NCBI GenBank assembly: GCA_023957235.1
Contig: JAMLHI010000001.1
Coordinates: 124,001 to 188,000, forward strand
Length of the DNA: 64,000 nt
Direction: 5' to 3'
Source: Chitinophagales bacterium
Lineage (GTDB): Bacteria; Bacteroidota; Bacteroidia; Chitinophagales; JADIYW01
Numbering within the stretch: the stretch's first letter is position 1; every line of letters starts with the position of its first letter. The position numbers and the translations under genes are program-made. Positions 2 to 47,479 of the stretch are shown piece after piece. The notes below the pieces were generated by a model, which was given only the letters and a program-made list of their open reading frames with translations, searched no databases and was not told where the DNA came from.

Positions 2-976
2 GCTTTTAATAGCAAAAACTATCGATTCCCTTCCATTCAAGATATTACAGTGCAAGGAAAAGCTGAAGAAATAGTAAGGTTAAGAGAAAAAGCTCAGGGC
101 GAAAATATTGATATGGATGATGTGGAAATTGGAGAAAAAATTGAAAAGCCCTACAAATATCTCGCTATCCTTCAAGCAGATGGAGACAATTTTGGAAAGG
201 TGATTTCTGCTATTAGTTCAGATGAAAGTAAAGTTACTCAGTTCTCAAAGGATTTAGTAAATTTTTCTGAAAAGGCATCAAAGATTATTCATGATTTTGG
301 TGGTACTATCATCTATATTGGTGGCGATGATATTTTGGCTTTTTGCCCATTAGTGAATTATGAAAAAAATATTTTTAATGTAGTCAAAACACTAAATGAG
401 CGGTTTCATGAGATTTTCAAGGATAATGTCTATAAGAAATATAAAGTATCACTTTCTTATGGTTTGTCCATTAGCTACTACAAGTATCCATTGAATGAAG
501 CCATGACAATAGCCCATGACCTATTATTTAATAAGGCTAAAAAAGAACCCTTGAAAAACTGTATTGCTTTTCAGGTATTGCAAAATAGTGGCTCTTTGCG
601 GGAAACTATTTTGAATTTTGAAAAGGACAAAAACTTTGATGCATTCTTAAAAATGTTTGCTGATGTCAAAGAAAAAGACCAATTGCTTCAATCCTTGACG
701 CATCAGCTTATCGAAGATGAACCACTTTTAAGAGCTTGTCTGAAGAAAAATAGAATAGATGGTTATTTTGACAACCATTATAACCCGGAAGCTAAAAAAA
801 CGGTTGTAAAAGATTTTATCGAAGCTATGAAATCCAACCTGAAAACAGGCTATACGATTTATCAGGAGGCTAATGCTAAATTAATAGCTGATGGGAAAAC
901 CCCAATTGAAAATATTGAGTTCAAAACCTTGCAGCAAATGAATACCATTGCCAAAACCATTAACTTTTTTAAATAG
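2..976 (+). CDS. cmr2: Cas10/Cmr2, type III-B CRISPR large subunit (5' end outside window)
   Basis: This is the C-terminal part of the Cas10 large subunit of a Cmr (type III-B) RNA-targeting complex. The reading frame is open to the first bases of the window, so the GTG at 50 is internal and the gene starts to the left. Upstream of it the frame gives a FPSI segment typical of Cas10. A DGD segment (codons 44-46 counted from the GTG) and an intact GGDD cyclase motif (codons 91-94, context YIGGDDILAF) mark the Palm2 domain, which in this family makes cyclic oligoadenylates from ATP when target RNA is bound. About 325 codons are visible, against 700-1000 in whole proteins, so the state of any HD DNase domain cannot be judged. 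cmr3 follows after 6 bp. A cmr1 gene, if present, must lie to the left. Confidence 0.93.
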   Translation, partial: AFNSKNYRFPSIQDITVQGKAEEIVRLREKAQGENIDMDDVEIGEKIEKPYKYLAILQADGDNFGKVISAISSDESKVTQFSKDLVNFSEKASKIIHDFGGTIIYIGGDDILAFCPLVNYEKNIFNVVKTLNERFHEIFKDNVYKKYKVSLSYGLSISYYKYPLNEAMTIAHDLLFNKAKKEPLKNCIAFQVLQNSGSLRETILNFEKDKNFDAFLKMFADVKEKDQLLQSLTHQLIEDEPLLRACLKKNRIDGYFDNHYNPEAKKTVVKDFIEAMKSNLKTGYTIYQEANAKLIADGKTPIENIEFKTLQQMNTIAKTINFFK

Positions 977-982
977 CAGATT

Positions 983-2038
983 ATGAGTCAAATAATAAAT
1001 ATCAAACTCAAACCGATAGATGACTATTTTTTCGGTAAAGAAAACTTGGATAAGAAAGGCGATGCAAATTACTTTCTCAAGAGCAATCATCTACCGCAGG
1101 TAACCACTGTTCTTGGTGCTATTCGTTACTGGTTATTGATAGCTACTAATAATTTTGAAAATAATTCTATAAAAGATAAAGCTAAAGCATCCAAAGACAT
1201 TGGTGATAAAAGCTATGTAGTCGGCAAACCTTTTCAATTAGGGAAAATAGAAAAAGTATCCAATCTTTTTTTATTAGATAAAGACAACCAAAAATTCATT
1301 CCTGCTCCATCATGGTTAGACAAGGAAGGTGCACAGTTTGACTGGAACGATGCTTTAGATGCTGCAATTTTACCAGGTTATAATGCCAAAGAATATTATC
1401 CTTCTTTATTTACCAATGGAAGTGCTGAAAAAAGTTATGATAGTATCTTCACAGAAAGTGAATATAGCCACAATAGAAAGAATGACAGAAATAATGACCA
1501 AGAAGATTCATTTTTTAAAACGCAAACATTCCGATTAAAAGACAACTTTTCCTTTGGGCTTACAGTTTGGCTTCGTGATGATTTAAAGATTAATAAAGAA
1601 TCTTGCATTTTCAAAATGGGAGGTGAGAATAAGTTGTTCCAATTGGAAATTATAGAAACAACATTACTATCGGAACAAGATATTTTAAAAAGCTATACCA
1701 ACAATCAATATCCTAAAATTGTTTTCACTTCTGATGCTTATTTACCCGAACTAAAAAAATCAGATTATTTGTTTGGTATCATCAACACCAAAAACTTTAG
1801 AAGCCTATTTGCTGAAATAGAAAAAGTTCAAAATTACAACGCCTTATCTAAAAATGATCCTGCTCAAATAGTCAAGAGTGAATTAAAACAACTCTTAGAA
1901 GCTGGCTCTGTTTTGTATTTTAAAGAGACGCAACAAGCCAATGATTTCATTTCGTGTCATCTCAAAAACCAGAGTCTAAGTAAAGCAGGTTTCAATCATT
2001 ATATTTTATTAAATCCAAAAGAAAATCAAACAATATGA
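983..2038 (+). CDS. cmr3: Cmr3, Cas5-group subunit of the type III-B complex
   Basis: Cmr3 caps the 5'-tag end of the crRNA in the Cmr complex, next to Cas10. The N-terminus reads KPIDDYFFG and is followed by LPQVTTVLGAIR. These match the family pattern of a Pro-Leu-Asp-x-x-Phe-Phe start and the segment after it that enters the first RAMP fold. The length of 351 residues is normal for Cmr3. The stop overlaps the start of cmr4 by 4 bp (ATGA), which suggests translational coupling. The assignment rests on the N-terminal motifs and on gene order (cas10-cmr3-cmr4-cmr5-cmr6). The rest of the protein is divergent, as is usual for this family. Confidence 0.88.
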   Translation: MSQIINIKLKPIDDYFFGKENLDKKGDANYFLKSNHLPQVTTVLGAIRYWLLIATNNFENNSIKDKAKASKDIGDKSYVVGKPFQLGKIEKVSNLFLLDKDNQKFIPAPSWLDKEGAQFDWNDALDAAILPGYNAKEYYPSLFTNGSAEKSYDSIFTESEYSHNRKNDRNNDQEDSFFKTQTFRLKDNFSFGLTVWLRDDLKINKESCIFKMGGENKLFQLEIIETTLLSEQDILKSYTNNQYPKIVFTSDAYLPELKKSDYLFGIINTKNFRSLFAEIEKVQNYNALSKNDPAQIVKSELKQLLEAGSVLYFKETQQANDFISCHLKNQSLSKAGFNHYILLNPKENQTI

Positions 2039-2811
2039 ATACTCAATTTTATACCATCAAAACTAAGAGCAATACCCATGTAGGTAGCGGTCAAAACAGC
2101 TACGGTATAGTGGATAACGTAGTACAAAAAGATTATAATACCGAATTGCCATGTATCAATAGCACCAGCCTCAAAGGAGCATTGAGAGAGTATGCAGATA
2201 GTGCTGGATGGGCAAACTTGGAAAGTATTTTTGGAAGTAAGCCTACTTCTACGAATGATCTCAAGCAGGGAACTCATTATTTCCAACCGGCTTATTTATT
2301 AAGCTATCCTATGCGAAGCAATCAAATGCAATTTTTCAATGTTACCTGTCCTTTGTTATTAGAGCAATTAAGCAATAGTTTGCCAACAAGTGGTTTAAAA
2401 ACAGCTGTAGATGCATTTTTAAATAGAGATGGAGTAAAAAACGTTGCAAAAAATCGCCCTCTTTCCGATGAAAAAGAGAACTGCATTATCGAAAAGCACA
2501 CCATTAAAACTATAAAAACTAATACTCCATTTGACACGGCTGTAAAGAATGTATTAGGCAATCATTTAGTCATCATGCATAATGATGATTTTAAAAATAT
2601 AGTAAAAAGATTACCGATTATTACCCGAAATCAATTAGAGAATGGTCAAAGCACAAATCTATTTTATGAGGAAGTGGTACCAAGAGAAACCATTTTTGGG
2701 TTTGTTATACAAGGAAAAGATATTGATACCGGCTTTGATAAAATAGACAATATTCAAATCGGTGCAAACGCAACAGTAGGCTATGGTTTTTGTTCACTTC
2801 AAAAAATTTAA
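2035..2811 (+). CDS. cmr4: Cmr4, Cas7-group backbone subunit and target-RNA nuclease
   Basis: Cmr4 forms the helical backbone along the crRNA and cuts target RNA at 6-nt intervals. The N-terminus reads THVGSG, then YGIVDNVVQKD, then NSTSLKGALRE, which is the typical Cmr4 order: HVGSG, the flexible loop with its catalytic Asp, and the SLKG RAMP motif. The C-terminus has the Gly-rich GANATVGYGF loop. The Asp of the VDN segment (about residue 27) is the expected catalytic residue. The length of 258 residues is close to the family norm. The ATG lies inside the last codons of cmr3, and cmr5 follows after 3 bp. Confidence 0.93.
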   Translation: MNTQFYTIKTKSNTHVGSGQNSYGIVDNVVQKDYNTELPCINSTSLKGALREYADSAGWANLESIFGSKPTSTNDLKQGTHYFQPAYLLSYPMRSNQMQFFNVTCPLLLEQLSNSLPTSGLKTAVDAFLNRDGVKNVAKNRPLSDEKENCIIEKHTIKTIKTNTPFDTAVKNVLGNHLVIMHNDDFKNIVKRLPIITRNQLENGQSTNLFYEEVVPRETIFGFVIQGKDIDTGFDKIDNIQIGANATVGYGFCSLQKI

Positions 2812-2814
2812 GTT

Positions 2815-3297
2815 ATGCAATCCATTATAGATGATTTATTAGCAGAAGCCATTACAGCTATAGCCAACATGCGAGAAATAAGAGAACATGAAAATGATGC
2901 CAATTCTAAAATAAAAGGAATTTATGAAAGCTACCTGAGCCAGTTTGGCCCTATGGCTTATCAAATTGGCATTCGAAGTACACTCGCTGTTTATTTCAAC
3001 AAAGATGGTAGCAAAAGTAAAGGCGATAGGAAATACATACTGAAATTAATTTTCAATCTATTGAAAGGTCATACGGCTTTGAGGTTTGCTTCTAAACAAA
3101 ATTTTGATCAATGGATAAATGCCATTTTAATTGACAAGGATATCAATCAAGCAGGTGAGGATTTACACGACCCGTCTTCAAACTGCAATGTTAACCCCAC
3201 GAATACCGATATCAGTCAATCAGATGAGGATTTACTATTAGATGCTTCTATTGCATTGAAAAGAGCGATTCGTACATTCTATTTAACCGATAAATAA
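2815..3297 (+). CDS. cmr5: Cmr5, Cas11-group small subunit
   Basis: Cmr5 is the small helical subunit that lines the belly of the Cmr complex and helps hold the target RNA. The product (160 residues) is predicted largely alpha-helical and contains the segment YLSQFGPMAYQIGIRSTLAVYF, which resembles the Cmr5 core pattern (a helix with a Leu-Pro or Phe-Gly-x-x-hydrophobic turn, then a Gly and an aliphatic helix). It is slightly longer than the usual 110-150 residues because of an acidic stretch near residues 103-140. Position between cmr4 and cmr6 supports the call. Without the context the sequence alone would be moderate evidence. Confidence 0.86.
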   Translation: MQSIIDDLLAEAITAIANMREIREHENDANSKIKGIYESYLSQFGPMAYQIGIRSTLAVYFNKDGSKSKGDRKYILKLIFNLLKGHTALRFASKQNFDQWINAILIDKDINQAGEDLHDPSSNCNVNPTNTDISQSDEDLLLDASIALKRAIRTFYLTDK

Positions 3298-3304
3298 GTA
3301 TATC

Positions 3305-4627
3305 ATGAGTTTACATAATCAGGTCAATTTAGGCTGGCATTTCTACCAAAACTATTTTGTGAACACTGATAATAATTCTTTAATGAATTTAACAGTTGAT
3401 GAACTAAAAAAAGATAGTACCGAAGAGTTATTCAAAAAGAAGAATAAAGAAATCACACAAAATTCTTACGATATTTCGTATTTTCAAAATAGCAAATCTA
3501 CTTTCGATTTATACACTGCTTATCCGGGTTTGCTTTTAGGTTCGGGCTATGGGCATGAAGTATCCGCAAAAGGCGAATTTAAGTTAGGTTTCTTTTTCGA
3601 TTACACAACAGGATTGCCTATCATTCCTGGCAGTAGCATCAAAGGTGTATTACGTTCCGTTTTTCCTGATTTCAAAGAGGATAAACTTAAAAATGAAATT
3701 GATAAGGTTAGAGTAGCGTGGTTAATTGGTTTATTGAATAATATCAATGACCCTGATTTTCTTAAAAAACATTACGAACCAGCTTCATTAACCAAAGTAA
3801 CAGATGAAGAAATCAAAAAATGGATAAACATCACTTTAGAAATTTTTGAAGGTGTAAAAGATAGTGCCGCCACTAAACCTAAAGACAAGTTTTACTCGAT
3901 TTACGAAAGAGATATTTTTCATGATGCCGTATTGAAATTTGCTGGAAAAGACAATCTTATTGTGGGCGAAGATGCACTAGCTCCTCATGTGAAAGATAAT
4001 ATGACTTATGAGCAAAGTATGCTTCATAATCCTGTTCCGCTTCCATTTTTGAAAGTATTACCGCAAGTAGGTTTTAGCTTCCATTTTGATGTAAAAAACA
4101 GCTCGCTCGATTCTAAACTTACCAAAGACAAAAAAATCCTCCTCTTCCAAAAAATCCTCCTCACCCTCGGCATCGGAGCCAAAACAAATGTGGGTTATGG
4201 ACAGTTTACTAATGAACTCATTAAAATTGAACAAAAAGAAGCTCCCCAGCAAACAACTAGGACTGAACACCAGCATCAGCAAGGTGGAAACTCTAAGCGA
4301 AGACCACCTGAAAAATTTGAGTCTAAATCCAAATACGAAAGACGGGCAGAACAAGTTGCGGCTCAGGATCAATCAAAAGTGATACATAATACAACTAATT
4401 ATCCTGAAGCAAATGAAAGTATGATGAATAGTATTGATGCAACAATTGTTGAAGTAAAATCTGGAACAATTGTAGTAAGTCCACATTACAAGGATAGTGA
4501 AAATATAAGTATTCAGGGTAAAACTGATAAGAAAAAAGGTGAGGTCATTAAGATTAAACCAACCGAAAAATCAGGTAAAGCTGAAAAAGGTAACTTAAAA
4601 TTTATCAAAGCTGCTCTCATCAAATAA
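3305..4627 (+). CDS. cmr6: Cmr6, Cas7-group subunit with an unusual C-terminal extension
   Basis: Cmr6 is the Cas7-like subunit at the 3' end of the Cmr backbone. It shows the RAMP motif PGSSIKGVLRS at residues 108-118 and the Gly-rich loop GIGAKTNVGYGQF near residues 290-302, the standard Cmr6 endpoints. The protein continues for about 138 more residues. First comes a Gln/Lys/Arg-rich low-complexity linker (about 310-370), then a beta-strand-rich, Lys-rich segment (about 372-440) that starts SIDATIVEVKSGTIVV. That layout is compatible with a small OB/S1-like RNA-binding fold, but this is a guess from pattern. Typical Cmr6 proteins end near the Gly loop. The nuclease gene follows after 7 bp. 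Confidence 0.9.
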   Translation: MSLHNQVNLGWHFYQNYFVNTDNNSLMNLTVDELKKDSTEELFKKKNKEITQNSYDISYFQNSKSTFDLYTAYPGLLLGSGYGHEVSAKGEFKLGFFFDYTTGLPIIPGSSIKGVLRSVFPDFKEDKLKNEIDKVRVAWLIGLLNNINDPDFLKKHYEPASLTKVTDEEIKKWINITLEIFEGVKDSAATKPKDKFYSIYERDIFHDAVLKFAGKDNLIVGEDALAPHVKDNMTYEQSMLHNPVPLPFLKVLPQVGFSFHFDVKNSSLDSKLTKDKKILLFQKILLTLGIGAKTNVGYGQFTNELIKIEQKEAPQQTTRTEHQHQQGGNSKRRPPEKFESKSKYERRAEQVAAQDQSKVIHNTTNYPEANESMMNSIDATIVEVKSGTIVVSPHYKDSENISIQGKTDKKKGEVIKIKPTEKSGKAEKGNLKFIKAALIK

Positions 4628-4634
4628 CCTTATC

Positions 4635-5552
4635 ATGCCCCACCAAAATCCACTCGTACAATCACTCTTAGAGCTTTCAGATGCTATTGAGCAGCTGGCA
4701 ACCACTATTGCCCGGCAAAAGAATAGCGACCAACAAATCCAACAAAAGCAGCTATCCGTTATTACCCAAAAATTCAAGCATGCTACGCAACTGATACACC
4801 CCGCTACGCAACAAGATAATGCGGCACTTATCCAACAAAAATATCAGAATGGATTTTTGAAAGAGCATCTAGACAATCAGGGCATTTTCATCTCCACCAC
4901 TATCGAAAATCTACGAGCCGATGAAAATCTGTATAAAGCAGTCGATTATCTGCAGGATCATTATACTTTACTAAAAGATTTTTATGCACACTTAAAAAGA
5001 AGTCAGGTTTTAAAAAAAGATTTTAATCATAAGAATACTGCGCACGCCATTCGCTATATTCAGGACTGGTGCAAAATACTGCACCATTATAAAATCATAG
5101 ATGGATTTAAAGTACTGAACCATTCAGAAATCTTTGTGGACATTGCTCAAATCGCTGAGGCTACCAGTTTTATCAACGGTTATTGGTTAGAGGTTTTGTT
5201 GAGAAGGGAAATTGCTTTGTTCCTACACGCTCATCTCTCTCAGATTCAGTCCTTCGATATTTTGAGTCAAACCACTGTTCTAAAGCAAGACAATACCAAT
5301 ACCGAACTCGATTTGTTATTGATGATCAATCAAAAAGTATATTGGTTTGAATGTAAAAGCGGTCAGATTAACAATTATTTTGAAAGATTCAAAGACACCA
5401 AAGAAGATCTGGGCATATCAGACAATCGTGCATTTTTAGTCATCCCAGCTCAAGACAACAATATTCCGCTTCATGCCAAAAAACGCTCCAATATGCTCAC
5501 ATTATTTGGCACTGAATTAGAAACACAATTAAAAAAACATCTGGATTTATAA
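4635..5552 (+). CDS. PD-(D/E)XK nuclease with DUF1887/Card1-like C-terminal domain, in the cmr operon
   Basis: The product has 305 residues. The C-terminal half has the PD-(D/E)XK pattern: WLE (E186), ELD (E224, D226), then E239-C-K241 in FECKSG, followed by a conserved-looking strand NRAFLVIP. The order FINGYWLE ... ELD ... ECKSG resembles the nuclease domain of DUF1887 proteins (Card1/Can2 type), which are CRISPR ancillary nucleases activated by cyclic oligoadenylate. Those proteins normally carry an N-terminal CARF Rossmann domain. Here residues 1-170 are Gln-rich and apparently helical or coiled-coil, with no Rossmann-type beta-alpha pattern that I can see. The gene sits between cmr6 (7 bp) and cas6 (1 bp), so it is co-transcribed with the effector. 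Substrate (DNA or RNA) and activator are unknown. The nuclease fold is likely; the role is inferred. Confidence 0.75.
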   Translation: MPHQNPLVQSLLELSDAIEQLATTIARQKNSDQQIQQKQLSVITQKFKHATQLIHPATQQDNAALIQQKYQNGFLKEHLDNQGIFISTTIENLRADENLYKAVDYLQDHYTLLKDFYAHLKRSQVLKKDFNHKNTAHAIRYIQDWCKILHHYKIIDGFKVLNHSEIFVDIAQIAEATSFINGYWLEVLLRREIALFLHAHLSQIQSFDILSQTTVLKQDNTNTELDLLLMINQKVYWFECKSGQINNYFERFKDTKEDLGISDNRAFLVIPAQDNNIPLHAKKRSNMLTLFGTELETQLKKHLDL

Positions 5553-5553
5553 C

Positions 5554-6417
5554 ATGAACTATCCTTATCAATTAAGCTTACACCGTTACAAGTTGACCTT
5601 TCAGCTTCCTGAAAATATGGACAATCAAAATTTCTTTGGCTCTAAGCTAAGAGGTATTTTAGGTGCTGTTTTAAAAGAAACAAATCCTGATGTTTTGAAA
5701 CATTTATACGAAAGACAAGCATTACCCAAAAACCACCCCGCATCGGTACATATTGGCGTAACACATAGTCCATCTCCTTTTATCATTTCAAGAATATTCC
5801 CCAAGGAATTTCAGCCGTCCCAAATTTCCTTTGTGCTGACTTTATTGGGTGACTATCATCAATATTTTATAAATATTTATCAAGCATTTGAAAATTTAGA
5901 AATTTTAGAAAACGAAAGTAAAGCCATCAAATTCATAGGTATGGAAAAACTCAATTGCTTAGAAACAGGACAACTGATTCATCATTATCAAGATATAGTA
6001 GCATTTTCAGAAAACATTGATACGACCTCTGTTACTTTGCTTTTCAAAAGTCCTTTTATTTTAGCAGATAAGAACAAAATGCCTATAGCTGATTTTTCTT
6101 TCCAAACTATCATTAAGAACTTGCACCGAAGACTAGCACTACTTTCTACTATTTTCGGACAGGCTACAACTGATATTGAAGAATGGGAAAGTGAAAACCT
6201 CAATCAGCAAGTACAACTTTCACATATTCAATTAACACCCAAAAAAATTAGTCGAGAACCAAGTGGGAAAAATAGCTATTCTAAAAATGCCTATATCGGC
6301 CAGCTCTCCTATGTTGGAGCATTAGAAAGCTACTTACCATTATTCATCATCGGGCAGTATATACATATCGGTGCTGATACTGCATTTGGATTAGGAAAAT
6401 ATAAATTAAAATATTGA
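5554..6417 (+). CDS. cas6: Cas6 CRISPR RNA processing endoribonuclease
   Basis: Cas6 cuts the precursor crRNA within each repeat, leaving an 8-nt repeat tag on the 5' side of every crRNA. The C-terminal segment YIGQLSYVGAL ... GQYIHIGADTAFGLGKYKL matches the Gly-rich RNA-binding loop and last strand of the CRISPR_Cas6 (PF10040) family. The N-terminal half has the first ferredoxin-like fold (YQLSLHRYKLTFQLPE). The length of 287 residues is normal. In this locus both repeat types have a small hairpin whose base lies exactly 8 nt from the repeat end, which fits Cas6 cleavage. The stop codon TGA overlaps the TTG start of the RT-Cas1 gene (TTGA). Confidence 0.9.
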   Translation: MNYPYQLSLHRYKLTFQLPENMDNQNFFGSKLRGILGAVLKETNPDVLKHLYERQALPKNHPASVHIGVTHSPSPFIISRIFPKEFQPSQISFVLTLLGDYHQYFINIYQAFENLEILENESKAIKFIGMEKLNCLETGQLIHHYQDIVAFSENIDTTSVTLLFKSPFILADKNKMPIADFSFQTIIKNLHRRLALLSTIFGQATTDIEEWESENLNQQVQLSHIQLTPKKISREPSGKNSYSKNAYIGQLSYVGALESYLPLFIIGQYIHIGADTAFGLGKYKLKY

Positions 6418-8642
6418 TAATAAATAAAGAACTATTACAAAACGCTTGGGAACAAATCCAATACAACAATGCACAAGGTGGTATTGACCGAATCTCTATT
6501 GATGATTTCAAAGAAAATAGTACTTCCAATTTAGAAAAAATAATTGTCAAATTACAATCTAAAACCTATTTACCACAACCCTATCTTCAAATCAAAATCC
6601 CTAAAGATAACGCTGAAAAACGAACAATCGGACTGGCTTCTATTGCCGATAAAATTGTTCAACAAGCCATCAACTCAATTCTAGAAAAAAGATTAGAAAA
6701 TACATTTTTGAATGTAAGCTACGCTTATAGAAAAGGAAAAGGAGCTCTCAAAGCCCTATCTCGTTTAAAACACCTTATTTTAAATGATAAAAATGAATTT
6801 ATTGTCAAATGTGATATAGACAATTTCTTTGACAATGTCCCTCACCATCGCTTAGAGAAAATATTAAACCCAATAGTAACAGATAAGTATTTCCTTGAAC
6901 TAATCTTAACATTCTGCAAAATGGGATATATAGAATCAGGAGTACAATGGAAAGATAGAGAAAAAGGTTTGCCACAAGGTGCAATACTATCACCGATACT
7001 TTCTAATCTATTTTTACACGCCCTAGACCAAAAGATGGTCAATAAAAAATATGCCTACATTCGCTATGCTGATGATTTTTTAATTCTTTGCAAACACGAA
7101 GAAGAGGCAAAAGCAATATTTTCAGAAACTCAAGATTATATTGTTCAAAAATTAAATTTAAAACTCAATGAGGACAATTATATAAAATCAATCCGTCAAG
7201 GCTTTAAATACCTAGGCGTTTGGGTGAATCAAGATGGCTTTTTTCTCAGACAAGAGAAAATAGAAAAAATTTGCGAAAAGATTAGAAAAGGATTTTTGCA
7301 TCCTGATTTCCCCAAAAAATATAAAGAAACAATTGCTGGCATTCAAAATTATTATGCCCAAGTTGTCCCTCAACATTACTTATTTCCTATTGATGAATTT
7401 CAAAAAGAAGTTTGGAAAGAAAAAATAAAAAAATTAAGAACTCAAAAAGAAGCAAAATTACTTTTAAACGAAATTGAATTTGTAACAGCTCATTTTAACC
7501 AAAATCAAGACTATCATATAAAACAAATTATTCGTTCAATTTTTGATGAAAAAAAAGCACCCATTATTGATACTGCAGAAAAAGCTATTCAGAAAAGAAA
7601 AAGAGAATTTGAACTGAAAGAATTTGAAAACCACGAGATCATTATTACTGGCTTTGGAAAATCATTAGGAATTGCCAAAAATCACTTAACGGTAAAAGTA
7701 GAAGGAAAACTAGTTCAAAAAGTTCCCCTACAAAACGTTGAACATATTTCTATACAATCAGAAGCTTGTAGTATCACTTCTAAATTAATTATCCATTGTG
7801 CAAAAAATAAAATACCCATTGATTTTACCGATTTTGGAGGAGAACCAGAAGCTAGATTATATGATACGATGAACGATATGTATGAACTATGGCATCAACA
7901 ATTTTTACACCTTTATTCCACAGAAGCCGTTCATACTGCCAATGCCATTATCATTGCCAAAATCAAAAATCAGAAAAAACTCATTCAATATTTCTCAAAA
8001 TATGCCAAAAAACATGAATCAGATTTGTCTGATGCACTCCCCTTTGCTTTAGAAAATTTCGATAAGCAATTGTCCAAAATTAAAGCCTTAAAGTCTAATT
8101 CAATTGATGAACACAGAGAAAAATTGATAAATATAGAAGCACAAGCATCTTTAACTTATTGGGAAATTGTTAGAATAATGATTGATGAAGAAACAAACTT
8201 TGAAACACGTACACGAAAAGGAGCAAAAGATTTAGTCAACAGCTTAATCAATTATGGCTACAGCATACTTTATCGCCACGTCTGGACATCCATTCTACAA
8301 CAAGGACTCAATCCAGCTTTTAGCTATATTCATCAACCAAGAAAATATGAAGGAACACTCATTTTTGATTTAATCGAACCCTTTAGACAGCCTATTATTG
8401 ATAGAGCCATAATTAGCTTAATTAATAAAAAAACAGAATTAAAAATCAAAGATGGAAAATTAGATAGTGCAACAATCCAAAAATTAATCGTTGCCGTCAA
8501 TGATAGATTAAGAAGATATGATACTTACTTAGGAGAAAGAAAAACAATGTTGAAAATTATAAAAAAACAAGCATGGCATTTTGTACAACACATTAAAAGC
8601 CCAGAGATTAAATTCAAACCTTATCAAATGAGTAAATGGTAA
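6414..8642 (+). CDS. cas1: Reverse transcriptase-Cas1 fusion protein
   Basis: This fusion joins a group II intron-like reverse transcriptase to the Cas1 integrase. The RT part (about residues 1-340) has NAEKRTIGLASIADKIVQQ, the motif A aspartates in KCDIDNFFD (D134, D136), GLPQGAILSPILSN and the catalytic YADD (218-221). The Cas1 part (about 408-742) has the expected metal ligands E575 (IEAQASLTYWE), H640 (SYIHQ) and D652 (FDLIEPFRQPIID). All catalytic residues appear intact. In studied RT-Cas1 systems the RT allows spacers to be acquired from RNA. No Cas6 domain is fused; cas6 is a separate gene. The start is a TTG that overlaps the cas6 stop; no in-frame ATG precedes the RT domain. cas2 follows after 43 bp, a gap that contains a heptamer tandem repeat. 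Confidence 0.96.
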   Translation: MIINKELLQNAWEQIQYNNAQGGIDRISIDDFKENSTSNLEKIIVKLQSKTYLPQPYLQIKIPKDNAEKRTIGLASIADKIVQQAINSILEKRLENTFLNVSYAYRKGKGALKALSRLKHLILNDKNEFIVKCDIDNFFDNVPHHRLEKILNPIVTDKYFLELILTFCKMGYIESGVQWKDREKGLPQGAILSPILSNLFLHALDQKMVNKKYAYIRYADDFLILCKHEEEAKAIFSETQDYIVQKLNLKLNEDNYIKSIRQGFKYLGVWVNQDGFFLRQEKIEKICEKIRKGFLHPDFPKKYKETIAGIQNYYAQVVPQHYLFPIDEFQKEVWKEKIKKLRTQKEAKLLLNEIEFVTAHFNQNQDYHIKQIIRSIFDEKKAPIIDTAEKAIQKRKREFELKEFENHEIIITGFGKSLGIAKNHLTVKVEGKLVQKVPLQNVEHISIQSEACSITSKLIIHCAKNKIPIDFTDFGGEPEARLYDTMNDMYELWHQQFLHLYSTEAVHTANAIIIAKIKNQKKLIQYFSKYAKKHESDLSDALPFALENFDKQLSKIKALKSNSIDEHREKLINIEAQASLTYWEIVRIMIDEETNFETRTRKGAKDLVNSLINYGYSILYRHVWTSILQQGLNPAFSYIHQPRKYEGTLIFDLIEPFRQPIIDRAIISLINKKTELKIKDGKLDSATIQKLIVAVNDRLRRYDTYLGERKTMLKIIKKQAWHFVQHIKSPEIKFKPYQMSKW

Positions 8643-8650
8643 TTAAAAAT

Positions 8651-8681
8651 TAACAACTAACAACTAACAACTAACAACTAA
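8651..8681. repeat. Heptanucleotide tandem repeat (TAACAAC) between RT-cas1 and cas2
   Basis: About 4.4 perfect copies of the 7-mer TAACAAC fill most of the 43-bp gap between the RT-cas1 stop and the cas2 start. It is seen directly in the sequence. Copy-number change here would alter only the intercistronic distance. Confidence 0.9.
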
Positions 8682-8685
8682 AATA

Positions 8686-8973
8686 ATGACTACAAAAACA
8701 CTGTATTTGATTTGTTATGACATACAAAAAGATAAGGCACGAAATAAAATTGCACAACTATTATCTGAAAATGGTAAAAGAATCAATTATAGTGTCTTTG
8801 AATGTTTTATTACCGAAACTAAGTTGCAAAAAATTAAAAATGAAATAGAAACACTTTGTAATGAAAAAACAGATTATATCAAAATATACCCTATTTGCCA
8901 AACTTGTTATTCTAAAAGCTTAATTATTGGAAATGAAGCATATTCCATCCAGAATCATAGTATTTTTATTTAA
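8686..8973 (+). CDS. cas2: Cas2, partner of Cas1 in spacer integration
   Basis: Cas2 is the small dimer that bridges two Cas1 dimers in the adaptation complex. The N-terminus (TLYLICYDIQKDKARNKIAQLLSENG) shows the first ferredoxin strand ending in the conserved Asp (D12) and the helix after it. SVFECFITE and IKIYPIC correspond to the next core strands. The length of 95 residues is typical. This is the last gene of the cas operon. The CRISPR leader begins directly after the stop codon, and there is no obvious terminator between cas2 and the array. Confidence 0.93.
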   Translation: MTTKTLYLICYDIQKDKARNKIAQLLSENGKRINYSVFECFITETKLQKIKNEIETLCNEKTDYIKIYPICQTCYSKSLIIGNEAYSIQNHSIFI

Positions 8974-9396
8974 AAAGACTTGCGAAAAAACATTGAGCCA
9001 TTGGATATTGATTATCATATAATTAGGAAAACCAAAGTTAAATAAATCAAATAGAATATTCGCAAAACGTAAAATAGGATAGAAAATAAAAATCTTTTGC
9101 GAAAAAACAAAAATTGAAGTTCTTTGACATACTGAAAATCAATATATTATAAATTTAAAAGCTGCATAAATTTCTCAAACATAAAAATAGGTAAGAGATA
9201 TAAAAATTATTGCGAACAATTATTCAATATAAAACTCTGATAATCAATATATATTTAGCGTCAACTCCATTTAATCAACAAATGAAAAATTCTGTTTTGC
9301 GAAAAAATAAGAAAATAAAACATTCTCCTTGAAATTCAATAAGATAGATTATCTTTGTATTGTGAGATTGAAAGTGCTGAGATTGAAAATCAAGGT
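8974..9396 (+). promoter_or_regulatory. CRISPR leader with repeated TTGCGAA motifs
   Basis: This AT-rich 423-bp stretch lies between cas2 and the first repeat. The heptamer TTGCGAA occurs four times in direct orientation (8980-8986, 9098-9104, 9210-9216, 9297-9303) and once inverted as TTCGCAA (9059-9065). Near the array an 11-mer, TGAGATTGAAA, is repeated with 15-bp period (9363-9373 and 9378-9388), ending 8 bp before the first repeat. A GTTCTTTGACAT segment lies near 9119. I see no open reading frame worth calling. The leader function follows from position; protein-binding roles of the motifs are inference. Confidence 0.8.
9329..9357 (+). promoter_or_regulatory. Predicted promoter of the CRISPR array
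   Basis: TTG (9329-9331) is followed after 18 bp by TATCTTTG (9350-9357). This closely fits the Bacteroidota promoter (TTTG, about 19 bp, TAnnTTTG). Transcription would start about 35 bp before the first repeat and run rightward through the array, giving crRNAs with the ACTGAAAC 5' tag. Confidence 0.7.
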
Positions 9397-12300
9397 GTTA
9401 CAAGAACATTTAGGCGACAGCCTACTGAAACGAATTGTACCACTTCTCCCGAAATCTGTGTCTGTTACAAGAACATTTAGGCGACAGCCTACTGAAACCT
9501 TCATAAGATTGATTTTCTAAAGAGTTTAATTGTTACAAGAACATTTAGGCGACAGCCTACTGAAACAAACTTCCAACTTGGAATAAAGTTCTTGTTTCTA
9601 GTTACAAGAACATTTAGGCGACAGCCTACTGAAACCCATTTGGTAGAGGGGTTTGTTCGTTTGTTTTTGTTACAAGAACATTTAGGCGACAGCCTACTGA
9701 AACGTTCCGCTTGGTGCTACATTCCTTGCTCTTACCCGTTACAAGAACATTTAGGCGACAGCCTACTGAAACGTTAAATCTGTTGCCATAATAAATAATT
9801 TTTTTGTTACAAGAACATTTAGGCGACAGCCTACTGAAACTTGTCAACTCTATTACTCTACCGTCTTCGTGGGTTAGTTACAAGAACATTTAGGCGACAG
9901 CCTACTGAAACGTTTGTTGCAACATTTAATAAGTAGCCCCTGTCGTCGTTACAAGAACATTTAGGCGACAGCCTACTGAAACACGCTCAATTAATTTGGT
10001 ACATTCTTTTTAGGTTACAAGAACATTTAGGCGACAGCCTACTGAAACATACCTGCGAGTAATTGGAGTTATATTCGCACTGGGTTACAAGAACATTTAG
10101 GCGACAGCCTACTGAAACGAACTCCCAACAGGCAACAACTCAAAAATTTCGTTACAAGAACATTTAGGCGACAGCCTACTGAAACCAGGAAGCGGTCCTT
10201 CAAGTTTAAAAAGATTCCACGTTACAAGAACATTTAGGCGACAGCCTACTGAAACTCGCTACACCAAAAGTGAAATCTTCCCTGTCTGTTACAAGAACAT
10301 TTAGGCGACAGCCTACTGAAACAAATTAACAACATCCCCGAATATCACAAGTTGATGTTACAAGAACATTTAGGCGACAGCCTACTGAAACAAATAAATA
10401 TCCTGTGAGAAATATAGTTGAAAAAGTTACAAGAACATTTAGGCGACAGCCTACTGAAACTTATTAGACTGTTTTAAAATTATAGTATAATCAGTTACAA
10501 GAACATTTAGGCGACAGCCTACTGAAACCTTTAAGATATTCTTCTTGAGATAACATATAAATTGTTACAAGAACATTTAGGCGACAGCCTACTGAAACTT
10601 CTTCTTCACTTAACTGCCCAAACCCGTCAAAGTTACAAGAACATTTAGGCGACAGCCTACTGAAACATTTGAAGCTACCTTTTTAAGTATGCTTTTGACG
10701 GTTACAAGAACATTTAGGCGACAGCCTACTGAAACTTATCATCTCGTATATATTCTAATTCAGCAGACGTTACAAGAACATTTAGGCGACAGCCTACTGA
10801 AACAATAGCCATAAGATGCTGGAAATGAATAGGTTTGTTACAAGAACATTTAGGCGACAGCCTACTGAAACTTATCACAACCTTCCGTAATCAATATCGC
10901 TTCTTTGTTACAAGAACATTTAGGCGACAGCCTACTGAAACATTTTGGAATTTAATAAATATCCATAGAAACAAGGTTACAAGAACATTTAGGCGACAGC
11001 CTACTGAAACCCGAGCTAACTTAAATAATTAGAACTATCAACCTGTTACAAGAACATTTAGGCGACAGCCTACTGAAACACATTTGCCAATGTTAAAAAT
11101 TTTAAATTCATGTTACAAGAACATTTAGGCGACAGCCTACTGAAACGGTCTAAATCAATATCTACAATGGTGCTAATGTCTGTTACAAGAACATTTAGGC
11201 GACAGCCTACTGAAACCACTTATCACAATATTTCATAGTCCAAGCCATTTTAGTTACAAGAACATTTAGGCGACAGCCTACTGAAACTCCCCTCCACCAG
11301 TGTGGCGGTACAGATGCACTGTTACAAGAACATTTAGGCGACAGCCTACTGAAACCTTTACCTGTTTGTTTGTTAATAATCCATCCTTGTTACAAGAACA
11401 TTTAGGCGACAGCCTACTGAAACAAAATTTCCACCAAGTAAGATTTTTTATATACCAGTTACAAGAACATTTAGGCGACAGCCTACTGAAACACAGCGTA
11501 GTAAACGCGTTTCTTGCCCCTACGGAAAGTTACAAGAACATTTAGGCGACAGCCTACTGAAACGTTTGGTTTTTGATTGTTTAAAAAATTGTTTACCAGG
11601 TTACAAGAACATTTAGGCGACAGCCTACTGAAACAGATTAAAGATAAATTTTTCATGGCTATTTTTTTAGTTACAAGAACATTTAGGCGACAGCCTACTG
11701 AAACCCCACGGGCATCATATTGCCCTGTGAATATCCTGGTTACAAGAACATTTAGGCGACAGCCTACTGAAACCTTGTTGTTGCTGTTGCAAAAAAGATT
11801 ACTGCGTTACAAGAACATTTAGGCGACAGCCTACTGAAACACGCCCGCCTCCTTTTGAAATTGAACAAAGCGAGTTACAAGAACATTTAGGCGACAGCCT
11901 ACTGAAACCTAAATCGCGGATGGTAAGTTTTACCTCATCATCGTTACAAGAACATTTAGGCGACAGCCTACTGAAACCATTAAAATCTTCCGCACAGCCT
12001 ATTTCTATTTGTGTTACAAGAACATTTAGGCGACAGCCTACTGAAACTTCCATCCATTCTTTAATTGCTTGAACTACTTCTACGTTACAAGAACATTTAG
12101 GCGACAGCCTACTGAAACTCTTTTTTTGTTGGTTAAAAATGCTTTTTAGTTGTTACAAGAACATTTAGGCGACAGCCTACTGAAACGTATTAACATCATC
12201 ATAGGATCATTGAATTTCATTGTGTGAGTTACAAGAACATTTAGGCGACAGCCTACTGAAACCTTTAGATATTTTAAAATTTTTATCTAAAAAGTGTTAC

Positions 12301-12745
12301 AAGAACATTTAGGCGACAGCCTACTGAAACTCATTACTTTAAATGACAAGTTTTTGCTTTCTCCATGTTACAAGAACATTTAGGCGACAGCCTACTGAAA
12401 CAACAATATTGAAATATATAATAATATTAACATGTTACAAGAACATTTAGGCGACAGCCTACTGAAACGCCTTTGATATTATCTCAGGCAGAAACTCTAA
12501 ATTGTTACAAGAACATTTAGGCGACAGCCTACTGAAACTAATAAAAATATTCTTCAAAATAATTATCATTATGTTACAAGAACATTTAGGCGACAGCCTA
12601 CTGAAACACGGCAAATATCATAAAAATATTTTTTTTCATGTGTTACAAGAACATTTAGGCGACAGCCTACTGAAACGAATAATCGCATGATGCGATTAAT
12701 TATTATTTCTGTTACAAGAACATTTAGGCGACAGCCTACTGAAAC
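9397..12745 (+). repeat. Type-1 repeat block of the array (49 repeats)
   Basis: Forty-nine repeats, from 9397-9431 to 12711-12745, look identical by eye. The usual period is 66-71 bp. One long spacer (41 nt, 12187-12227) follows the repeat at 12152. This is the leader-proximal and so the youngest part of the array. Confidence 0.95.
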
Positions 12746-12780
12746 GTAAGCGGATGATAAATTATCTGAGTACTCTGCAT

Positions 12781-12815
12781 GTTACAAGAACATTTAGGCG
12801 AAAGCCTACTGAAAC
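12781..12815 (+). repeat. Chimeric CRISPR repeat (type-1 5' half, type-2 3' half)
   Basis: This repeat has the type-1 5' part (GTTACAAGAACATTTAGGCG) joined to the type-2 loop base and 3' part (AAAGCCTACTGAAAC). It stands exactly at the border between the type-1 block on the left and the type-2 block on the right. Confidence 0.95.
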
Positions 12816-12849: not shown

Positions 12850-13714
12850 GATTAGAACTATCAAAGGCGAAAGCCTACTGAAACTATTTACATATTTTAC
12901 AACATGCCTGTTGCTTTTGATTAGAACTATCAAAGGCGAAAGCCTACTGAAACCAAGAATTTTCATTGAAAGCGGTTTTGTGCTTGATTAGAACTATCAA
13001 AGGCGAAAGCCTACTGAAACCATAAAATAAATTTTGAAAATTAATAATATGCTAGATTAGAACTATCAAAGGCGAAAGCCTACTGAAACTATGTTATTAT
13101 GTCCTCAAAACTATTCCCTATAAAGATTAGAACTATCAAAGGCGAAAGCCTACTGAAACAATGTAAGACAAGATATAATTAATCCAGTAATGATTAGAAC
13201 TATCAAAGGCGAAAGCCTACTGAAACATTTTATTTATATTTTTGTCAAGGAACTTTTGAGAGTGATTAGAACTATCAAAGGCGAAAGCCTACTGAAACTG
13301 TCTTGTACCATTTTTTATTCTAATTTTAAGTTGGATTAGAACTATCAAAGGCGAAAGCCTACTGAAACTTTGTTCTTTTTCATAGGTATATGCGCTAAAA
13401 TCTTGATTAGAACTATCAAAGGCGAAAGCCTACTGAAACAGGGGAAAATATATAAAAAGAGGGTATTTCTACCCTGATTAGAACTATCAAAGGCGAAAGC
13501 CTACTGAAACGAGCTTTTCTTTCATTTGATAAAGTATTCATGTGATTAGAACTATCAAAGGCGAAAGCCTACTGAAACAATTTCTTCCAATTTCCTGATT
13601 CACTTTCTAAGGATTAGAACTATCAAAGGCGAAAGCCTACTGAAACCTATTTTATAAGGTTTTTCTTTTATAAAATTTTGATTAGAACTATCAAAGGCGA
13701 AAGCCTACTGAAAC
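12850..13714 (+). repeat. Type-2 repeat block of the array (13 repeats)
   Basis: Thirteen apparently identical repeats start at 12850, 12919, 12986, 13055, 13125, 13192, 13264, 13334, 13405, 13476, 13544, 13612 and 13680. They begin GATTAGAACTATCAAAGGCG and end with the same GCCTACTGAAAC as type 1. Spacers are 32-37 nt and AT-rich. Confidence 0.96.
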
Positions 13715-13750: not shown

Positions 13751-13785
13751 GTTACAAGAACATTTAGGCGACAGCCTACTGACAT
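13751..13785 (+). repeat. Terminal degenerate type-1 CRISPR repeat
   Basis: After the type-2 block the final repeat is again type 1 and matches at 33 of 35 positions. The end is GACAT instead of GAAAC, so the 8-nt tag is damaged. Degeneration of the distal repeat is normal in CRISPR arrays. A type-1 repeat here shows that the type-2 block is enclosed by type-1 repeats on both sides. Confidence 0.95.
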
Positions 13786-14910: not shown

Positions 14911-14934
14911 GTTCCAAGAGCATTTAGGCGATAG
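14911..14934 (+). repeat. Fossil type-1 CRISPR repeat outside the array
   Basis: The segment GTTCCAAGAGCATTTAGGCG and the four bases after it match the first 24 nt of the type-1 repeat at 21 positions. The 3' part of the repeat is lost. It is 1.1 kb beyond the end of the array, in the same orientation. Confidence 0.75.
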
Positions 14935-15036
14935 TGTCAACCTATTTTAGGACAAGGCACATTAACATCGATACAACTTTAACTATTTGTTTTTTCAAAT
15001 TTAAGAGAATTAGTATATTTATATCAAACCTCTATA

Positions 15037-47304: not shown

Positions 47305-47479
47305 GTGAATGGTGAATGGGGAATAGTGAATAGTGAATAGTGAATGGTGAATGGGGAATAGTGAATAGTGAATAGTGAATGGTGAATAGTGAATAGTGAA
47401 TGGTGAATAGTAAATAGTGAATGGTGAATAGTAAATAGTGAATGGTGAATAGTAAATAGTGAATAGTGAATGGTGAATG
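47305..47479. repeat. Heptanucleotide tandem repeat, 25 copies
   Basis: Twenty-five 7-bp units, 175 bp in all, of consensus GTGAATR with a few GGGAATA and GTAAATA variants. The units never slip out of phase. It is a minisatellite-like tract between rplM and a family-B repeat block. The frame across it on the minus strand would give a FTIHYSL-type repetitive peptide, which I do not accept as a gene. Confidence 0.92.

What the first reader, a model, noticed from the sequence alone, without database searches (positions are those of the whole stretch)
6414..9396. RT-Cas1 with intact active sites, leader and array: likely RNA-capable spacer acquisition
YADD, the motif A aspartates and the Cas1 Glu-His-Asp triad are all present. 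The array is long (63 spacers) and its leader-proximal repeats are uniform. Together they suggest an active system that can record transcripts, in a Bacteroidota host with separate cas6. RT-Cas1 itself is known; the combination with a mixed array and the unusual nuclease is not one I know.
Basis: partly seen in the sequence, partly recalled or inferred. Interest (0 to 1): 0.6.

Follow-up and report, generated by a model that had tools for sequence, protein, structure and literature searches.

The report
RT-Cas1 adaptation module, type III-B CRISPR
This is an intact but ordinary example of a known bacterial immune-memory gene (a reverse transcriptase fused to Cas1), and although its stored spacers do look like copies of invaders' messages read backwards, relatives that lack the reverse transcriptase show the same bias, so the array does not show that it records RNA.

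Summary
RT-Cas1 (6414-8642; YADD 218-221, Cas1 E575/H640/D652), cas2, a leader and a 63-spacer array are all there, in a complete type III-B operon whose upstream part, outside the window, carries DEDD, CorA, Cmr1 and an HD-less Cas10. The RT-Cas1 belongs to a well-supported Flavobacteriales/Chlorobiota group, and the CorA + DEDD + Cmr + RT-Cas1 layout is published.

In crRNA orientation, 46 of 60 spacers are pyrimidine-rich, and stop codons are avoided in the reverse complement. Both indicate crRNAs antisense to coding RNA.

That bias belongs to type III systems in general: 68% of spacers in 71 RT-Cas1 arrays, 68% in 24 type III arrays without RT, 50% in 18 type I arrays. The RT/non-RT difference is 0.7 points (95% CI -5.6 to +6.8). 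Strand bias therefore cannot diagnose RNA capture. An A-tail-like end footprint is strong in a Prevotella-type RT-Cas1 clade but absent here.

The mixed array is an A-repeat array holding a 13-repeat block of a second repeat, joined by a hybrid repeat. Verdict: known kind, intact, plausibly RNA-capable, not shown.

The parts
2..976 (+). cas10/cmr2, C-terminal part (whole gene L003:15471-16976, 501 aa; GGDD present, no HD domain found)
983..2038 (+). cmr3
   Evidence: PF09700 E 2e-25
2035..2811 (+). cmr4
   Evidence: TIGR02580 E 5e-42
2815..3297 (+). cmr5
   Evidence: PF09701 E 1.4e-4; PADLOC Cmr5 E 1.4e-13
3305..4627 (+). cmr6
   Evidence: TIGR01898 E 3.5e-27
4635..5552 (+). Card1-like PD-(D/E)XK nuclease with no detectable CARF domain
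   Evidence: PF09002 E 9e-8 on residues 175-303 only; homologue beside the RT-Cas1 of L184, 44% identity
5554..6417 (+). cas6, separate gene
   Evidence: PF10040 E 2e-11; PADLOC Cas6 E 9e-36
6414..8642 (+). RT-Cas1 fusion: RT residues ~2-330, Cas1 ~409-739
8686..8973 (+). cas2
   Evidence: PF09827 E 2e-21
8974..9396 (+). leader; holds the only three copies of TTGCGAAAAA in the window (8980, 9097, 9297)
9397..12780 (+). leader-proximal part of the array: 49 identical A repeats, spacers 1-49
12781..12815 (+). hybrid repeat: A-type 5' half joined to B-type 3' half
12850..13714 (+). 13 B repeats (GATTAGAACTATCAAAGGCGAAAGCCTACTGAAAC) with spacers; same hairpin and 8-nt 3' tag as A
13751..13785 (+). 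degenerate terminal A repeat
14911..14940 (+). decayed A-type repeat beyond a cluster of REP-like elements

Best explanation
This is the adaptation module of a complete, apparently intact CorA-type III-B CRISPR-Cas system. Shown from sequence: RT-Cas1 with intact RT and integrase residues, Cas2, a leader, a long array, and mostly antisense-to-coding crRNAs. Inferred: RT-Cas1/Cas2 integrates RNA- or DNA-derived prespacers at the leader; Cas6 cuts the shared repeat hairpin; Cmr-crRNA pairs with invader transcripts; Cas10 makes a nucleotide signal (probably SAM-AMP, since CorA and a DEDD phosphodiesterase are encoded) that opens CorA. The antisense bias is best explained by selection on spacers that work, because non-RT type III arrays show it equally. 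The two-repeat array arose by recombination between an A-repeat array and a block from a B-repeat array, inside the shared 3' half of the repeats.
For: Domains and active-site residues; fold; phylogeny, 100% support with Flavobacteriales/Chlorobiota RT-Cas1; DEDD, CorA (E 6e-121), Cmr1 and Cas10 upstream. Window spacers 46 Y-rich to 14 R-rich, p 4e-5; host mRNA-sense 34-mers 628 R-rich to 359 Y-rich; stop avoidance in the reverse complement, z 2.9 against 1.2 for the sense strand. Y-rich: RT arrays 813/1188, non-RT type III 276/408, type I 341/685. Hybrid repeat, shared hairpin, decayed B repeats in G051. Published: acquisition by an RT-Cas1 only moderately antisense (PMC5576922); selection-driven bias without RT (PMC7515739).
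Against: No protospacer was found, so neither expression bias nor RNA origin could be measured. The A-tail footprint expected from the Marinomonas enzyme is absent in the window (first base T 16 of 63, expected 23.6). The strand test is a composition proxy with orientation taken from repeat ends. SAM-AMP rather than cyclic oligoadenylate is inferred from neighbouring genes only.
Confidence: 0.76

Rival explanations
1. The antisense bias is a direct record of RNA capture: RT-Cas1 samples mRNA and inserts it mainly in the antisense direction.
For: Bias present in the window and in 64 of 71 RT arrays. In Marinomonas the moderate antisense bias of new spacers needs the RT (PMC5576922).
Against: Type III arrays without RT show the same bias (difference 0.7 points, 95% CI -5.6 to +6.8), across three GC bands.
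Confidence: 0.15
2. The module now acquires only from DNA; the RT domain is intact but unused, or serves only to fill in or tail DNA prespacers.
For: No A-tail footprint in this array; no RNA-phage match; homologues also integrate DNA (PMC11014452).
Against: All RT catalytic residues are conserved across a divergent clade, implying continued selection on RT activity.
Confidence: 0.2
3. The array is a relic: the system is no longer expressed or adapting.
For: Decayed repeats and REP-like clusters lie at the trailer end; no protospacer is known.
Against: 49 identical leader-proximal repeats, no broken frame among the operon's genes, strand bias maintained through the array.
Confidence: 0.08
4. 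The two repeat types arose by gradual drift of one repeat rather than recombination with a second array.
For: The hybrid differs from A by one base.
Against: A and B differ through the whole 5' half with only one intermediate, a terminal A repeat follows the B block, and B-type repeats occur on their own in G051.
Confidence: 0.15

Closest known systems
Bacteroidota RT-Cas1 fusions (clade 2B of Toro et al. 2018, PMC6013744; B. fragilis III-B RT-Cas1, PMC5704556)
   Same: RT-Cas1 fusion of about 750 aa without a fused Cas6, with Cmr genes, in Bacteroidota
   Different: 46-48% identity to the nearest held relatives (Flavobacteriales, Chlorobiota); CARF-less nuclease in the operon
Marinomonas mediterranea RT-Cas1 (type III-B, PMC5576922, PMC11014452)
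   Same: RT-Cas1/Cas2 of a type III-B system, shown to take spacers from RNA and DNA
   Different: Marinomonas has an N-terminal Cas6 domain fused and leaves noncoded A tails; here Cas6 is separate and no such footprint is seen
Cas6-RT-Cas1/Cas2 complex 7kfu/7kft (PMC8102632)
   Same: Best whole-protein structural match to the model
   Different: Three-domain fusion; only 18% aligned identity
CorA-associated type III-B systems with SAM-AMP signalling (PMC10600005)
   Same: CorA + phosphodiesterase (NrN or DEDD) + Cmr1-6 + cas6 + cas1 or RT-cas1 + cas2
   Different: The extra Card1-like nuclease is not mentioned in the passages read

Membership tests
RT-Cas1 fusion (CRISPR-associated reverse transcriptases) | RVT_1 and Cas1 domains in one uninterrupted frame | tested here: met
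RT-Cas1 fusion (CRISPR-associated reverse transcriptases) | YADD and motif A aspartates; Cas1 catalytic E-H-D | tested here: met
RT-Cas1 fusion (CRISPR-associated reverse transcriptases) | RNA spacer acquisition dependent on the RT | not testable with these tools
   needs an acquisition assay; no protospacers found
Toro clade 2B (Bacteroidetes RT-Cas1 without Cas6 fusion) | Tree position with Bacteroidetes RT-Cas1 fusions | tested here: inconclusive
   Falls among Bacteroidota RT-Cas1, apart from the Cas6-RT-Cas1 group, but Toro's reference sequences were not included
Type III-B CRISPR-Cas | cas10/cmr2 with cmr1, cmr3-cmr6 | tested here: met
CorA/SAM-AMP type III-B | CorA gene next to a phosphodiesterase (NrN or DEDD) | tested here: met
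   L003:12140-13723 and 11568-12134
CorA/SAM-AMP type III-B | Cas10 makes SAM-AMP | not testable with these tools
   biochemical
Marinomonas-type A-tailing of RNA prespacers | A-tail footprint at spacer ends (5' T in crRNA orientation) | tested here: not met
   Window 16/63 first-base T (expected 23.6); met in the Prevotella-type clade, 249/477 (expected 141.5)

The most novel reading that the evidence does not exclude
In natural arrays RT-Cas1 adds no measurable antisense enrichment over ordinary type III Cas1, so its benefit is not strand choice. Separately, one RT-Cas1 clade (Prevotella-type) leaves a protospacer-free tail footprint in its arrays, while the clade of this window leaves a different one (T at the 3' spacer end), pointing to clade-specific end processing before integration.
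Probability: 0.45. Interest if true: 0.55.

Novelty: new member of a known kind. Interest (0 to 1): 0.3.

Why it matters
As a locus it is one more intact Bacteroidota RT-Cas1 system. The comparative result bears on a question left open in print (PMC8482600): whether the coding-strand bias of natural type III arrays comes from RT-Cas1 acquisition or from selection. RT and non-RT arrays being equal favours selection, and means strand bias should not be used as evidence of RNA recording.

Tried and rejected
Spacer matching: own genome (63/63 array copies recovered as a positive control, no self-target), 398 genomes of the order (one 26/27 match in a host-type gene, judged chance), phages, plasmids, five exact scans of viral contigs (52-56); spacers of other RT-Cas1 arrays against phages: nothing usable.

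That the window's cas6 + RT-Cas1 is a recent split of the same-genus Cas6-RT-Cas1 fusion (G001): rejected, they lie in different clades.

Open-frame counts without a composition null were uninformative and were replaced by dinucleotide shuffles. The spacer-end signature does not track apparent source strand (5' T 0.54 in Y-rich, 0.47 in R-rich spacers), so it is not claimed as an RNA footprint. The nuclease model was too poor to search (pLDDT 44). Rfam found nothing. The same-genome II-C array leans to purines (13 to 4), but its crRNA orientation was not established, so it was not used as the main control.

Full report
What is there. The window starts inside cas10 of a type III-B operon. With the upstream sequence (L003) the gene order is DEDD exonuclease, CorA, cmr1, cas10, cmr3, cmr4, cmr5, cmr6, a Card1-like nuclease, cas6, RT-cas1, cas2, leader, array. 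RT-Cas1 is a single 742-aa frame with motif A aspartates, YADD and the Cas1 E-H-D residues. A 17-sequence AlphaFold2 model has mean pLDDT 85.6, and its best solved match is the Cas6-RT-Cas1/Cas2 complex 7kfu, followed by Archaeoglobus Cas1 and group II intron RTs.

Relatives. RT-Cas1 was found in 31 of 395 sampled Bacteroidota genomes and among 79 named loci kept from a scan of species genomes. In the tree the window joins Flavobacteriales and a Chlorobiota sequence with 100% support, apart from the Cas6-RT-Cas1 fusion present in a member of the same genus. The literature already holds RT-Cas1 with Cmr in Bacteroidota (PMC5704556, PMC5541045, PMC6013744) and CorA loci with RT-Cas1 or DEDD (PMC10600005).

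The array. There are 64 repeats and 63 spacers: 49 A repeats, a hybrid, 13 B repeats and a degenerate terminal A. A and B share the hairpin and the last eight bases, so one Cas6 should process both. B-type repeats occur in a decayed two-repeat remnant in another member of the order. The simplest history is recombination within repeats that placed a B block inside an A array; this is inference.

Where the spacers come from. Nothing matched: own genome with a full positive control, 398 genomes of the order (its first look scores few candidates per genome, so sensitivity is limited), phages, plasmids and five exact viral-contig scans (52-56). This agrees with the failure to trace RT-linked spacers in PMC5513706.

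Strand test without protospacers. In this host coding strands are purine-rich (628 against 359 34-mers), so antisense crRNAs should be pyrimidine-rich. In the window 46 spacers are pyrimidine-rich and 14 purine-rich (p 4e-5). An independent signal agrees: stop codons are avoided in the reverse complement (z 2.9) more than in the spacer strand (z 1.2) against dinucleotide shuffles.

Is it the RT? I extracted arrays from RT-Cas1 loci, from type III loci without RT, and from type I loci. The non-RT and type I controls are Bacteroidota; the RT set is mostly Bacteroidota but also includes Campylobacterota and others. Arrays were oriented by repeat ends, which agreed with the degenerate-trailer end in 31 of 32 and 21 of 25 arrays where both were available. 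Pyrimidine-rich fractions: RT-Cas1 813/1188 (71 arrays), non-RT type III 276/408 (24 arrays), type I 341/685 (18 arrays). RT minus non-RT is 0.7 points, bootstrap 95% CI -5.6 to +6.8, similar in three GC bands. The non-RT count includes two arrays re-oriented by hand after the first tally; before that it was 261/400 (Fisher p 0.24). Stop avoidance also appears in non-RT arrays. PMC8482600 reported 65% coding-strand targeting for mapped type III spacers and left open whether RT-Cas1 or selection causes it; PMC7515739 shows selection can do so without RT; PMC5576922 shows only moderate orientation at acquisition by an RT-Cas1. Strand bias is therefore real here but not evidence of RNA capture.

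Spacer ends. Marinomonas RT-Cas1 leaves noncoded A residues on RNA-derived spacers (PMC11014452). Arrays of the FADD (Prevotella-type) clade start with T in 249 of 477 spacers (expected 141.5, p 1e-24; all 15 arrays of ten or more spacers) and carry 5' T runs of five or more in 18 of 477, against 3 of 413 in non-RT arrays (p 0.003). The window lacks this (16 of 63, expected 23.6; no run of four) and instead leans to T at the 3' end (33 of 63, p 0.02), as do the few spacers of its close kin. Many base-by-group comparisons were made here, so the window's own end signal is only a lead.

Verdict. A new, intact member of a known kind. RNA-capable acquisition is plausible by homology (about two in three), not demonstrated. 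The combination with a CARF-less Card1-like nuclease is uncommon but recurs once beside an RT-Cas1 (L184).

Noticed in passing
L100, L072, L101, L115 (RT-Cas1 loci): Four RT-Cas1 proteins of the phylum sample carry YADN instead of YADD, with the rest of the fusion intact; no paper in the library held YADN together with Cas1 and reverse transcriptase.
   Followed up: partly
L102-L126 (FADD clade arrays): Spacers start with T far above chance and often with T runs, a possible footprint of A-tailing before integration in natural arrays.
   Followed up: partly
window 4635-5552; L184:446-1357: Card1-like PD-(D/E)XK nuclease without a detectable CARF domain between cmr6 and cas6, with one homologue at the same place (44% identity). 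How it would be switched on is unknown.
   Followed up: partly
L183 and L184: Nearly identical cas6-RT-cas1 genes sit beside different effector genes (large multi-RAMP proteins suggestive of III-D, against Cmr plus nuclease): the adaptation module seems to move as a cassette.
   Followed up: partly
L003:8596-8630, 9212-9245, 10831-10866; window 14911-14940: Solitary or decayed copies of repeat A border clusters of REP-like elements on both sides of the cas operon; two share the same 13 bases between repeat and element.
   Followed up: partly
window 11011-11044 (spacer 24): The spacer contains ATTAGAACTATCAA, 14 bases of the 5' half of repeat B.
   Followed up: no
L284 (G051:C31:301200-301330): Two decayed B-type repeats around a long palindromic 'spacer' in another member of the order, with no array left.
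   Followed up: no
window 8980, 9097, 9297: All three copies of TTGCGAAAAA in the window lie in the leader (0.41 expected in the whole window).
   Followed up: no
L004 (G000:C12:173000-192000): Second CRISPR system in the genome: a 1491-aa Cas9-like protein, Cas1, a Cas2-like protein and a 48-nt repeat array with 20 spacers, with a 204-aa protein resembling a REP-type transposase between cas1 and cas9.
   Followed up: partly
window 47305-47478: About 25 tandem copies of GTGAATA, a candidate phase-variable or satellite tract.
   Followed up: no
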